Below are positions 27,761 through 48,325 of a stretch of DNA of 64,000 bases, piece after piece. The translations under genes and the position numbers were made by a program. The stretch's first letter is position 1. Each line of letters begins with the position of its first letter. The notes beneath the pieces are model-generated. The model did no database searches and was not told where the DNA came from. It saw nothing but the letters and a program-made list of their open reading frames with translations. Source of the DNA: Metabacillus sp. KUDC1714 (lineage in GTDB: Bacteria; Bacillota; Bacilli; Bacillales; Bacillaceae); assembly GCF_014217835.1 (NCBI RefSeq), contig NZ_CP055263.1:1178001-1242000 (forward strand). Direction: 5' to 3'.

Positions 27761-27792
27761 AAAACAAAAACCACCAAATATGTATTTGGTGG
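27761..27792 (-). terminator. tmRNA terminator
   Basis: The encoded 3' CCACCA forms the left arm: CCACCAAATA pairs with TATTTGGTGG and is followed by TTTTTGTTTTG. Confidence 0.88.
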
Positions 27793-28428
27793 AGACGGTG
27801 GGACGTGCTATTCCATACTTTCGATATGGCACTGACTATATCTTGAACCTGATAGATACAGGTCCTTCGGCGTCTTATACGAAACATAGATTTACCTGAA
27901 CTTAATCAGGCTGGTTTTCGTATCCTAGTACTACCAATCATGGCAGCCTATAAGTCGATACACGGCTGTTGGATTACTCCACATACCGCTCGGCATTGCC
28001 CTATCACATTTTTGTGACTTAGGTTTCACCGATAAAGCCGAATTTTCACTTATGTGTTACCACATAAGGCGACTAATAATTAATCGAACCCACGTCCAGA
28101 AACATCGCCACTTAAGCGTCTACGAGCGTAGTCGATATATTCGCAGTTTCGCTAACTCCTATGCCTATCGACAGGCGTCAGAGTAGCTAGTCTGATTGGT
28201 CTCTTCCATCATCCCCAGACGGAGGAATTAGGCGTAGTCCACTAAGAGTGAGTCCCTTACCCTACCACATGGACGATGGAGGGAGGAACAGCTACGCAGT
28301 TATTAAGCTGCGAAAGCTAAGTTATTGTTAGTTTTGCCAGTTATTATTGGCGTGACGTTTTAACGAAGACGATCCCTTCGGCCCGCAACCTAAGCTCGAA
28401 CTACCCCTGTCGAATCCGTAACGTCCCC
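27787..28428 (-). ncRNA. ssrA: tmRNA (ssrA), interrupted in the T-loop by a group I intron
   Basis: Rescues stalled ribosomes together with SmpB. The 5' end GGGGACGTTACGGATTCGAC starts at 28428. The 3' end CGTCTCCACCA ends at 27787 with encoded CCA. The acceptor stem GGGGACG / CGTCTCC pairs over 7 bp. The tag frame at 28338-28300 encodes GKTNNNLAFAA followed by two stops. The T-arm is split: GTGGG-TTCGAT ends at 28083 and T-CCCAC resumes at 27803. Joining them restores a perfect 5-bp T stem with a 7-base loop and gives a mature RNA of 363 nt (346 + 17). The intervening 279 nt are listed separately. smpB lies 196 bases upstream on the same strand. Confidence 0.95.
27804..28082 (-). ncRNA. Group I self-splicing intron inside tmRNA
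   Basis: 279 nt. The exon before it ends in U and the intron ends in G, as group I chemistry requires. P1 can form: exon CGAU pairs with internal guide GUCG (nine bases into the intron), giving a U-G wobble at the splice site. The conserved 3' P7 segment AAGATATAGTC is present, preceded by a P8-like hairpin (GACCTG / CAGGTTC) and followed by a P9-like hairpin (CCATA / TATGG). P4-P5 can form from CGGTGAAACCTA and TAGGGCAATGCCG. It has no open frame of note, hence no homing endonuclease. Confidence 0.88.
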
Positions 28429-28440
28429 ATGATAAGCCGT

Positions 28441-28452
28441 ATTATACCAGCT
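28441..28452 (-). promoter_or_regulatory. tmRNA extended -10 promoter
   Basis: TGGTATAAT on the minus strand is an extended -10 box, with TATAAT at 28446-28441, about 13 bases before the tmRNA 5' end. The -35 region is weak, as often seen with TGn promoters. Confidence 0.6.
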
Positions 28453-28624: not shown

Positions 28625-29092
28625 CTATTCCTTTTGACGTTCTCTAAAGGCACGTTCGATATCACGCTTAGCTTCTTTTTTCTTTAAATCCTCACGTTTA
28701 TCGTATTTTCTTTTACCCTTACCAAGGCCTATTAAAACCTTAGCGTAACCATTTTTTAAATACATTTTCAATGGTACCAATGCATAGCCTTCTTCTTTTG
28801 TAGCACCTATTAATTTTACAATTTCACGTCTATGCAATAAGAGCTTTCTTGTACGTAAGGGTTCATGGTTATAACGATTCCCTTGCTCATATGGACTAAT
28901 GTGCATATTGTGCAAATATACTTCGCCATGTTCCACTCGTGCGAAGGAATCCTTTAATTGTACTCGACCGTTACGAATTGATTTTATTTCAGTACCTTGA
29001 AGGACAATGCCGGCTTCATAAGTTTCTTCAATTGAGAAATCATGATTAGCCTTTTTGTTTTGAGCTAATACTTTTCCAGTTCCTTTAGGCAT
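28625..29092 (-). CDS. smpB: SsrA-binding protein SmpB
   Basis: 155 residues: an OB-fold core ([38 protein letters not shown]) and the basic C-terminal tail ([18 protein letters not shown]) that enters the decoding centre. It binds the tRNA-like domain of tmRNA and delivers it to stalled ribosomes. AGGGAGGG precedes the ATG. Gene order secG-est-rnr-smpB-ssrA is the standard Bacillus arrangement. Confidence 0.97.
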
Positions 29093-29495: not shown

Positions 29496-31853
29496 TCAAG
29501 CTTTCTTTTTCTTTTTCCGCTTCGCTTTCGGTGCATTTTCATAGTGCTTTTTCTTCTTTTTTCGTGGTGGACGGGTTGACCAGTCGCCATCCTTATCCTT
29601 ATCCTTATCTTTTCCACTACCGCTTCTATTACCTTTTTGATTTGCATCTTTTCTACCTTTACCAGCTATAATAACCTTTGGTCTATCTTTCGCTTCCGGT
29701 CTTCTCGTTCCCTTCATGCCAACGATCTCAAAGTCGATAGAGCGCTCTTCTTTATTAACATTTACGACTCGAACCGTAATTTCATCACCAATTCGATACA
29801 CATTTCCTGTACGTTCGCCAATCATTGCGTAATGACGTTCATCATATCGATAATAGTCATCCGTCATATAACTAACATGAACGAGACCTTCAATTGTATT
29901 TGGTAACTCAACAAACATACCAAAGTTAGTAACAGAGCTTATCATGCCGTCATATTCTTCGCCAATTTTATCAAGCATGTATTCTGCTTTTTTCAACTCA
30001 TCTGTTTCACGCTCTGCTTCAACCGCTCTGCGTTCCATATTTGATGCTTGTTCTGCAATGACAGGTAAGCTTTCTCCCCATCTCGAACGGGTCGCTTCAT
30101 CAACTTTGCCTTCAATTAAATATGTTCGAATTAATCGATGGACAATTAAGTCAGGATAACGACGGATTGGAGATGTAAAATGTGTGTAAAATTCCGTTGA
30201 TAATCCAAAGTGACCTAAGCTTTCTGGGTCATATTTTGCTTGCTTCATTGAACGAAGCATTACCGTTGATATCACCGTTTCTTCTGGTGTTCCTGCTACT
30301 TCCTCCAAAATATTTTGCAATGCTCTAGGATGGATTTCGTTAGCAGAACCTTTAACCGTGTATCCGAAATTTGTAATAAACTCTAGGAAACGCTGAAGCT
30401 TTTCAGTATTTGGATCTTCATGAATTCGATAAATAAATGGCACGTTCATCCAATGAAAATGCTCAGCAACCGTTTCATTTGCTAATAACATGAATTCTTC
30501 AATTAACCGCTCTGCAACCGAACGTTCTCGAATCACAACATCATGTGGGTGGCCTTCATCATTTACAAGCACCTTTGCTTCTTTAAAATCAAAATCAATT
30601 GCGCCACGGTTCATTCGTTTTGTGCGTAGGATTTGTGCAAGTTCACCCATTTGTTCAAACATTGGTACAAGCTTTTCATACTTTTGCAGAAGTGCCTCAT
30701 CACGATCTTCGAGGATTTTTTTCACATCAGAGTAGGTCATCCGTTCAGTCGTTTTAATGACACTTTGGAAGATCTCATGTTTTACAACTGTTCCTGCTTC
30801 ATCTATTTCCATTTCACATGACAAGGTTAGTCGATCTACCTTTGGATTTAATGAACATATTCCATTTGAGAGACGATGAGGAATCATTGGAATTACACGG
30901 TCTACAAGGTACACACTTGTCCCACGCTCTAATGCTTCACGATCGATTGGGGACTGCTCGGTTACATAATGACTTACATCGGCAATGTGAACACCTAGCT
31001 TGTAGTTTCCATTCGCTAATTTTTGAACGGTAACAGCATCATCTAAATCCTTTGCATCCGCTCCGTCAATTGTCACAATTGTTTCATTACGTAAATCACG
31101 ACGGTCTTTTAAATCTTCTTCATTAATTGACTCAGGTACATCATTTGCTTGCTGAATCGCTTCTTCAGGAAACGGACCAGGTAGTCCATGTTTATGGATA
31201 ACAGATAAAATATCAACACCTGGGTCATTTTTATGACCTAAAATGTCGATTACTTCACCCTCTGCACTCATTCGTCCTTCAGGATAAGTTGTAAGTTTTA
31301 CAACAACTTTATGGCCTTCTACTGCCCCATTTGCAGCATTTTTTGGAATGAAAATATCATTGGCAATTTTCTTATCATCAGGAATCACAAAGCCAAAATT
31401 TTTGCTTTCTGTATATGTCCCAACAATTTCTTTTACGCCGCGTTCTAAAATACGAATAATCGTACCTTCTTGACGTGATCCACCTGCAGACTTAGCGCTT
31501 ACTCTTACTAAAACAATATCACCATGCATCGCTGTTTTTAGTTCGGTAGGTGGGATAAATACATCATCTAAGCTAGTATCTTCAGGGTCTACGAAAGCAA
31601 ATCCTTTTGCATGGCCGATAAGCTTCCCTTTTAATAAATTCATTTTTTCTGGTAAGCCATATCGGTTACTTCTCGTTCTAACAACTAATCCTTGATCCTC
31701 CATCGCTACTAACGCTTTGACAAAATCTTTAAATTCAGTTGAATCCTCTATTCCAAACGCTTCCTCTAGTTCTTGAACGGTAAGAGGCTTGTATGCTTCT
31801 TCCTTCATGAAAGCTAGTAGTTTATTGATATGTACTTGTATATCTTGATCCAT
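29496..31853 (-). CDS. rnr: Ribonuclease R
   Basis: 3'-to-5' exoribonuclease of 785 residues for structured RNA. Order: N-terminal winged helix (about 1-65), two cold-shock domains, the RNB catalytic domain with [14 protein letters not shown] (the Mg-binding aspartates, near 265-280) and [15 protein letters not shown], an S1 domain from about 625, and a lysine-rich tail. AAGGAGG precedes the ATG. It shares an operon with est (15 bases upstream), secG and smpB. With SmpB and tmRNA it degrades defective mRNAs. Confidence 0.97.
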
Positions 31854-48235: not shown

Positions 48236-48270
48236 TTAGTTCACCTCAAGTAAAGTAAAAAGAAATTCTC

Positions 48271-48325
48271 CTTAGGTCCGTAGCTTTGCGTCACCAACTT
48301 TCGCTGGGTTTGCCATTATCGAAGA
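48271..48325 (-). promoter_or_regulatory. Cyclic di-GMP-I (GEMM) riboswitch
   Basis: On the minus strand the aptamer core appears in order: GGCAAACC, CGAAAG tetraloop-type stem, GTGACGCAAAGC, and ACGGACCTAA. These are the conserved blocks of GEMM-I. It lies in the leader of the GGDEF-EAL gene, 36 bases before the start. No clear terminator follows, so control may act on translation. Confidence 0.88.

What the first reader, a model, noticed from the sequence alone, without database searches (positions are those of the whole stretch)
27787..28428. Group I intron in the T-loop of tmRNA
Seen: the tmRNA gene is complete from GGGGACG to CGTCTCCACCA except that 279 nt separate the T-loop bases TTCGAT and T. 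Removing exactly those bases restores a perfect T-arm (GTGGG-TTCGATT-CCCAC). The segment obeys group I rules: U before the 5' site, G at the 3' end, P1 pairing of exon CGAU with internal GUCG, a P7 segment AAGATATAGTC, and hairpins in the P8 and P9 positions. Known: group I introns favour conserved tRNA-like loops; I recall tmRNA T-loop introns reported in a few bacteria, so the class may be described but is rare. Inference: ribosome rescue in this strain depends on RNA self-splicing, perhaps with a regulatory effect through GTP or temperature. The intron lacks an endonuclease gene, so its spread would be by another route.
Basis: partly seen in the sequence, partly recalled or inferred. Interest (0 to 1): 0.9.

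Follow-up and report, generated by a model that had tools for sequence, protein, structure and literature searches.

The report
Self-splicing-type intron inside tmRNA gene
The only gene found here for tmRNA, the RNA that frees stuck ribosomes, is split by a self-splicing-type intron in a spot where such introns are already well documented in related bacteria, so the find is real but of a known kind.

Summary
On the minus strand, ssrA runs 28428..27787: exon 1 (346 nt), a 279-nt insert (28082..27804), exon 2 (17 nt). Joined, the exons are a complete 363-nt tmRNA for ARAGORN; unspliced, it finds none. The insert is a group I intron: Rfam 44.8 bits, E 1.2e-9, below the curated cut-off of 50, with a P1-P9 core backed by compensatory changes in 67 aligned introns. 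No second tmRNA was found in the genome. Splicing itself is inferred.

The class is published: 883 intron-form genes, most at this T-loop position (PMC11915505); a tmRNA intron is cited as self-splicing (PMC2729099). In this order at least 90 of 397 sampled genomes have it. Regulation by GTP or temperature was not tested.

Unexpected: two congeners (G011, G012) have an intron-free, replaced tmRNA 3' end followed by a 5'-truncated intron plus the old exon 2, a relic of intron removal by recombination at ssrA. I saw no description of this in three search listings (papers not opened).

The parts
28083..28428 (-). ssrA exon 1 (5' acceptor strand, tag region, pseudoknots, 5' T-stem and first six T-loop bases)
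   Evidence: RF00023 153.1 bits; ARAGORN on joined exons
28300..28338 (-). tag reading frame GKTNNNLAFAA**
   Evidence: ARAGORN tag 91-129 of the joined gene, converted to window coordinates
27804..28082 (-). 279-nt group I intron, omega-G at 27804, T-loop subsite 7, no endonuclease gene
   Evidence: RF00028 44.8 bits, E 1.2e-9, below gathering 50; covariation; ORF check
27787..27803 (-). ssrA exon 2 (last T-loop base, 3' T-stem, 3' acceptor strand, CCA)
   Evidence: sequence and joined-exon ARAGORN
28070..28086 (-). P1: exon CGAU (28086-28083) with internal guide GUCG (28073-28070), U.G at the 5' splice site
   Evidence: 67 of 67, but rows were selected for these letters
28049..28068 (-). P2 hairpin with GUAA loop
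   Evidence: 5 of 8 pairs with two-sided changes
27866..28042 (-). P3: UUCGGC (28042-28037) with GCCGAA (27871-27866), crossing P7
   Evidence: 4 of 6 pairs with two-sided changes, 100% of cells paired
27963..28032 (-). P4-P5-P5a-P6-P6a domain
   Evidence: 11 of 19 pairs with two-sided changes (helices 4-7)
27834..27956 (-). P7: GACU(U)AUA (27956-27949) with UAUAGUC (27840-27834); P7.1 and P7.2 hairpins and P8 between
   Evidence: P7 67 of 67 invariant (3' strand selected for); P7.1 3 of 6, P7.2 6 of 8, P8 2 of 5 pairs with two-sided changes
27813..27829 (-). P9 hairpin with GAAA loop
   Evidence: 2 of 6 pairs with two-sided changes
27761..27792 (-). terminator-like hairpin CCACCAAATACATATTTGGTGG followed by a T-rich run, overlapping the CCA end
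   Evidence: read directly; no scan run
28441..28446 (-). TATAAT -10-like box 12 nt before GGGGACG
   Evidence: read directly; no scan run
28625..29092 (-). smpB (tmRNA partner protein) upstream; rnr at 29496-31853
   Evidence: ORFs; names by recognition, not searched

Best explanation
This is an ordinary HEG-less group I intron at T-loop subsite 7 of ssrA in a Metabacillus-type bacterium. The precursor is transcribed as one RNA with about 642 nt from GGGGACG to CCA; the intron folds (P1-P9, P3/P7 crossing), an external guanosine held at P7 attacks after U28083 (the U of the P1 U.G pair), the freed exon 1 attacks after omega-G 27804, and the joined T-arm lets the 3' end be matured and charged. 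Shown: gene structure, boundaries that fit the group I rules, a conserved and covarying fold, a single copy found, occurrence in relatives. Inferred from known group I chemistry: that it splices itself, in vivo, to give functional tmRNA.
For: Exon and intron hits and boundaries; joined exons give a full tmRNA, unspliced none; two-sided changes at 33 of 69 pairs in 67 introns; -1U, P1 U.G and omega-G rules met, the same rules the literature uses; published class of 883 members mostly at this subsite; the C. botulinum tmRNA intron (exon 338 / intron 287 / exon 24 nt) is cited as previously shown to self-splice (PMC2729099 passages); no other ssrA found; 12 of 21 genus genomes have the intact intron form.
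Against: RF00028 score is 5 bits below the curated cut-off. No RNA data. P1 and the 3' strand of P7 never vary in A1 partly because rows were chosen by those letters.
Confidence: 0.95

Rival explanations
1. The intron is catalytically dead here and the strain is effectively tmRNA-less, relying on other rescue factors.
For: RF00028 score below the cut-off; an NFACT_N (RqcH-type) protein is encoded.
Against: All 69 proposed pairs form in the window's own intron; relatives keep the fold by compensatory change; tag frame, acceptor and T-arm exons are intact; an open smpB-like frame lies next door.
Confidence: 0.03
2. The insert is an intervening sequence cut out by nucleases without religation, giving a two-piece tmRNA.
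For: Two-piece tmRNAs exist (permuted forms, PMC11915505 passage).
Against: Exons are in normal order; a 17-nt 3' piece would be hard to hold; group I boundary rules and a covarying ribozyme core are unexplained by this.
Confidence: 0.02
3. Assembly artefact or misplaced sequence.
For: None found.
Against: The whole 642-nt gene with intron is matched at 93-99% identity in 11 other genomes of the genus, and the intron form is in 90 of 397 sampled genomes of the order (G000 is one of them).
Confidence: 0.005

Closest known systems
Intron-form tmRNA, T-loop subsite 7 (Williams 2002, not held, known from citations; model tmRNA_intron of PMC11915505)
   Same: Position after the sixth T-loop base, -1U, omega-G, length (279 here; mean 293 for the 843 founding sequences), Bacillota host, no HEG (36 of 883 have one)
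   Different: Nothing essential seen; the tmRNA_intron model itself was not available to score it
Clostridium botulinum tmRNA group I intron (PMC2729099, passages)
   Same: Exon/intron/exon sizes 338/287/24 nt as built there versus 346/279/17 here; group I, cited as self-splicing
   Different: Sequence not compared here
Group I introns of flagellin genes in Bacillaceae (PMC3984707 passages)
   Same: Group I intron in a bacterial gene; one also overlaps a flagellin-like gene in this genome (RF00028 72.7 bits, L009)
   Different: Host gene is protein-coding, insertion site unrelated

Membership tests
Group I intron | P1 with U.G at the 5' splice site and 3'-terminal omega-G | tested here: met
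   P1 in 67 of 67 rows, rows selected for the P1 letters
Group I intron | Conserved core P3-P8 with P4-P6 and P3/P7 crossing helices | tested here: met
   P3 4 of 6, P4-P6a 11 of 19 pairs with two-sided changes; P7 invariant; 98.8% of cells paired over all helices
Group I intron | Match to RF00028 at or above the gathering score (50 bits) | tested here: not met
   44.8 bits, E 1.2e-9; a score threshold, not a biological definition. Of the 12 intact tmRNA introns of the genus, six are listed at 39.2-44.8 bits (G000, G001, G005, G007, G014, G016) and six are not listed at E 1e-4 under that search's stricter filters
Group I intron | Guanosine-initiated self-splicing | not testable with these tools
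   Needs RNA work
Intron-form tmRNA (subsite 7) | Intron in the T-loop after the sixth base, exons reconstituting the T-arm | tested here: met
   definition (numbering is my reading of the Figure 2 legend)
Intron-form tmRNA (subsite 7) | tmRNA with tag frame, acceptor stem and CCA in the joined exons | tested here: met
   ARAGORN 1-363, GKTNNNLAFAA**
Mobile (homing) group I intron | Encoded homing endonuclease | tested here: not met
   No ORF of 80 aa lies inside; longest stop-free stretch 53 codons
Permuted two-piece tmRNA | Exons in circularly permuted order | tested here: not met
   Order 5' to 3' normal; RF04321 only 27.3 bits, cut-off 47

The most novel reading that the evidence does not exclude
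The 3' end of ssrA is a recombination joint at which the tmRNA intron is swapped out: incoming DNA (an integrative element targeting tmRNA, or a donor ssrA) supplies an intron-free T-arm-to-CCA end (GAGGG-TTCGACT-CCCTC, with C in place of the -1U), pushing the old intron and exon 2 downstream where they decay. G011 and G012 hold the relic (intron truncated at the same base, old exon 2 kept); in G011 the sequence upstream of ssrA follows G014/G005 while the relic and downstream DNA are nearest G012, as expected if the joint lies in ssrA. This would be a general route for losing an intron from a housekeeping RNA gene without precise deletion.
Probability: 0.5. Interest if true: 0.45.

Novelty: already known. 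Interest (0 to 1): 0.3.

Why it matters
ARAGORN finds no tmRNA in this window, so a reader might call the strain tmRNA-less; the intron explains it. If splicing is needed for every tmRNA molecule, the gene is a natural test of what an intron costs in ribosome rescue. The relics in two congeners make intron turnover at ssrA testable, since intact, relic and intron-free alleles occur within one genus.

Tried and rejected
Search for a displaced intron or its exon 2 in viral contigs: 85 stretches with AAGATATAGTCAGTGCC, 80 listed; 80 matches examined, none with a tmRNA exon beside it; the replaced tail as an exact 32-mer gave 0 viral contigs. Phage and plasmid collections at E 1e-5: matches only within exon 1, none to the intron. 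Displaced introns elsewhere in the order: 91 loci from the 90 genomes were checked by a loose pattern; 90 loci (89 genomes) have exon 1 directly before the intron, and the last (L381) does too, read by eye. So no relic without its own intact intron form was seen there; this sample held only G000 of the genus. The insert between new tail and relic was first thought to be an island fragment; similar hairpins lie right behind ordinary intron-form ssrA genes (L158, L183, L304, L317), so it may just be a donor ssrA terminator, and the island reading is not proven. G003 as a loss: it nests among intron carriers, but gain of the intron with flanking conversion in its sisters gives the same pattern, so only G011/G012 show direction. 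Regulation by GTP or temperature: not tested.

Full report
WHAT IS THERE. On the minus strand ssrA spans 28428..27787. Exon 1 is 346 nt, the intron 279 nt (28082..27804), exon 2 17 nt. Rfam sees a tmRNA (RF00023, 153.1 bits, E 8.9e-62) and a group I intron (RF00028, 44.8 bits, E 1.2e-9, gathering score 50 not reached) overlapping at the T-arm. ARAGORN finds no tmRNA in the window or in the unspliced gene, but a complete one (1-363, tag GKTNNNLAFAA**) in the joined exons; on the joined sequence it also lists a permuted-type call wrapping round the ends (271,217), which I take as an artefact. smpB and rnr lie upstream (names by recognition). A TATAAT box and a terminator-like hairpin that shares the CCA end were read by eye.

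IS IT THE ONLY COPY. The held genome (one contig, 5,764,082 bases) has one RF00023 hit over the cut-off; the other 25 listed hits score at most 28 bits and are 76-91 or 17-18 bases long. RF00028 finds two introns: this one and a 72.7-bit one overlapping the end of a flagellin-like gene.

FOLD AND COVARIATION. Of the genome loci, 79 passed filters (265-345 nt, GTCGCC, AAGATATAGTC), 66 remained after removing near-identical ones, and with the window 67 were aligned. Because exon end, GTCGCC and AAGATATAGTC were used to choose rows, the invariance of P1 and of the 3' strand of P7 is partly by construction. For the 13 helices I named (69 pairs; the tool counts 12, merging P5 and P5a), 98.8% of 4623 cells pair, 33 pairs have changes on both sides (shuffles 16.2, none of 500 as high), and sliding the partners drops pairing to 31-38%. 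P2, P3, P4, P5/P5a, P6, P6a, P7.1, P7.2, P8 and P9 have such changes; P1 and P7 never vary. The structure was derived from the window's own sequence, which favours it over the slid versions. The P7.1/P7.2 hairpins between P7 and P3 suggest subgroup IA (recalled, not tested).

DISTRIBUTION. In the window's genus (21 genomes held) two contig lengths equal those of Metabacillus crassostreae DSM 24486 and Bacillus sp. J37 records (sequence compared by eye only), hence 'Metabacillus-type'. Twelve of 21 have the intact intron form (G000, G001, G002, G005, G006, G007, G008, G013, G014, G015, G016, G019), 2 a relic (G011, G012) and 7 no intron (G003, G004, G009, G010, G017, G018, G020; G017 from a contig edge, its line). 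In the family (80 genomes; 79 with an RF00023 match, G017 without) the only matches below 154 bits are those of the 12; the other genera score 183 bits or more, as unbroken genes do. In the order, 90 of 397 genomes drawn from a larger group, in 40 of 136 genera, carry the intron 3' end plus exon 2 at E 1e-10 (diverged introns would be missed), and all 90 have exon 1 before it (one read by eye). So the class is patchy but common here, though rare over all bacteria (883 of 97,179 unique tmRNA sequences).

KNOWN. PMC11915505 (abstract, passages and part 1 of section 12 read) reports 883 unique intron-form tmRNAs, most at T-loop position 7; those at position 7 are in 21 phyla, predominantly Bacillota; founding introns average 293 nt; 36 of 883 have a homing endonuclease gene. 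The window's intron, after the sixth loop base, is position 7 by my reading of the Figure 2 legend. PMC2729099 (passages) built the C. botulinum tmRNA precursor (338/287/24 nt) and cites its intron as previously shown to self-splice. Williams 2002 was not held and is known to me from citations and recall. Whether this exact sequence is in the tmRNA database was not tested.

RESCUE. A PF05833 (NFACT_N) protein at 567 bits is encoded elsewhere in the genome, so an RqcH-type route probably exists besides tmRNA; that link is recalled knowledge, not tested here.

RELICS AND EXCHANGE. In G011 and G012 exon 1 runs directly into GAGGG-TTCGACT-CCCTC...CCA, then 103 or 89 bases containing a terminator-like hairpin, then an intron matching the sister intron of G014 from its position 78 on (94.5% identical) and the old TCCCACCGTCTCCACCA. 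P1, P2 and the 5' strands of P3, P4 and P5 are gone, so this intron cannot splice. Within exon 1, G011 differs from its intron-bearing sister G014 only at the T-stem base next to the joint. Upstream DNA puts G011 with G014/G005 (96.3 and 95.3%) against G012 (90.5%), whereas the last 195 bases of the intron (98.5% with G012; 94.8% with G014, 95.8% with G005) and the 900 bases downstream (78.7% with G012; 63.1% with G014, 60.3% with G016, 51.5% with G005) put it nearest G012. G014 and G016 are 69.5% alike downstream; most other downstream pairs are at 40-48%, so that flank is variable in the genus. On a 1.5-kb tree of 20 of the 21 genomes (G017 left out), G012, G005, G014 and G011 form one clade with G012 outermost, and G003, intron-free with the same new T-arm, groups with the carriers G007 and G016 (100/100; 94/94 with G007); for G003 gains in its sisters are also possible. 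The insert between new tail and relic was found in no other of the 21 genus genomes except a short hairpin match in G004; related hairpins sit behind ordinary ssrA genes elsewhere. G152, in another family of the order, carries an intact intron-form tail followed by a similar hairpin and a decayed second intron end, and G119 has a second 3' tail (intron end plus exon 2) about 1.7 kb downstream. These fit repeated recombination at the ssrA 3' end. I saw no description of this in three searches (listings only, 15 of 33 rows shown), which do not cover subscription papers.

VERDICT. Real, correctly read, already a known class; modest interest, with the relics as the one unexpected part.

Noticed in passing
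L009 1501-1839 (G000:C1:1342156-1342494, minus strand): A second, stronger group I intron (72.7 bits) overlaps the 3' end of a flagellin-like gene; six family genomes have two RF00028 hits about 440 bases apart (G009, G013, G067, G072, G074, G075), perhaps two introns in one gene.
   Followed up: partly
L204 8209-8569 and L205 7949-8311: G016 and G003 carry a second, intron-free ssrA with another tag (GKQQNNFAFAA) followed by tRNA-Leu(gag) and tRNA-Ala, in L204 among ordinary-looking chromosomal ORFs; G016 also has the intron form.
   Followed up: partly
L384 (G119:C10:1-6000): The ssrA 3' tail including the intron's last bases is repeated about 1.7 kb downstream, as if an element had used it as attachment site.
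   Followed up: partly
L336 (G152:C12:99300-101700): A decayed second intron end and exon 2 lie behind an intact intron-form ssrA, with a hairpin like that of the G011/G012 relics.
   Followed up: partly
L191 and L199 (IMG/VR contigs): Two viral contigs have interrupted tmRNA-like T-arms with longer inserts, 669 and 598 nt; not checked for endonuclease genes.
   Followed up: no
L075, L076, L078, L079, L081, L095, L099 and similar: Proteobacterial genomes have T-loop inserts of about 250-350 nt that lack the AAGATATAGTC motif of the Bacillaceae introns.
   Followed up: no
window 48237-48324, minus strand: c-di-GMP-I riboswitch aptamer, 38.1 bits over a cut-off of 35.
   Followed up: no
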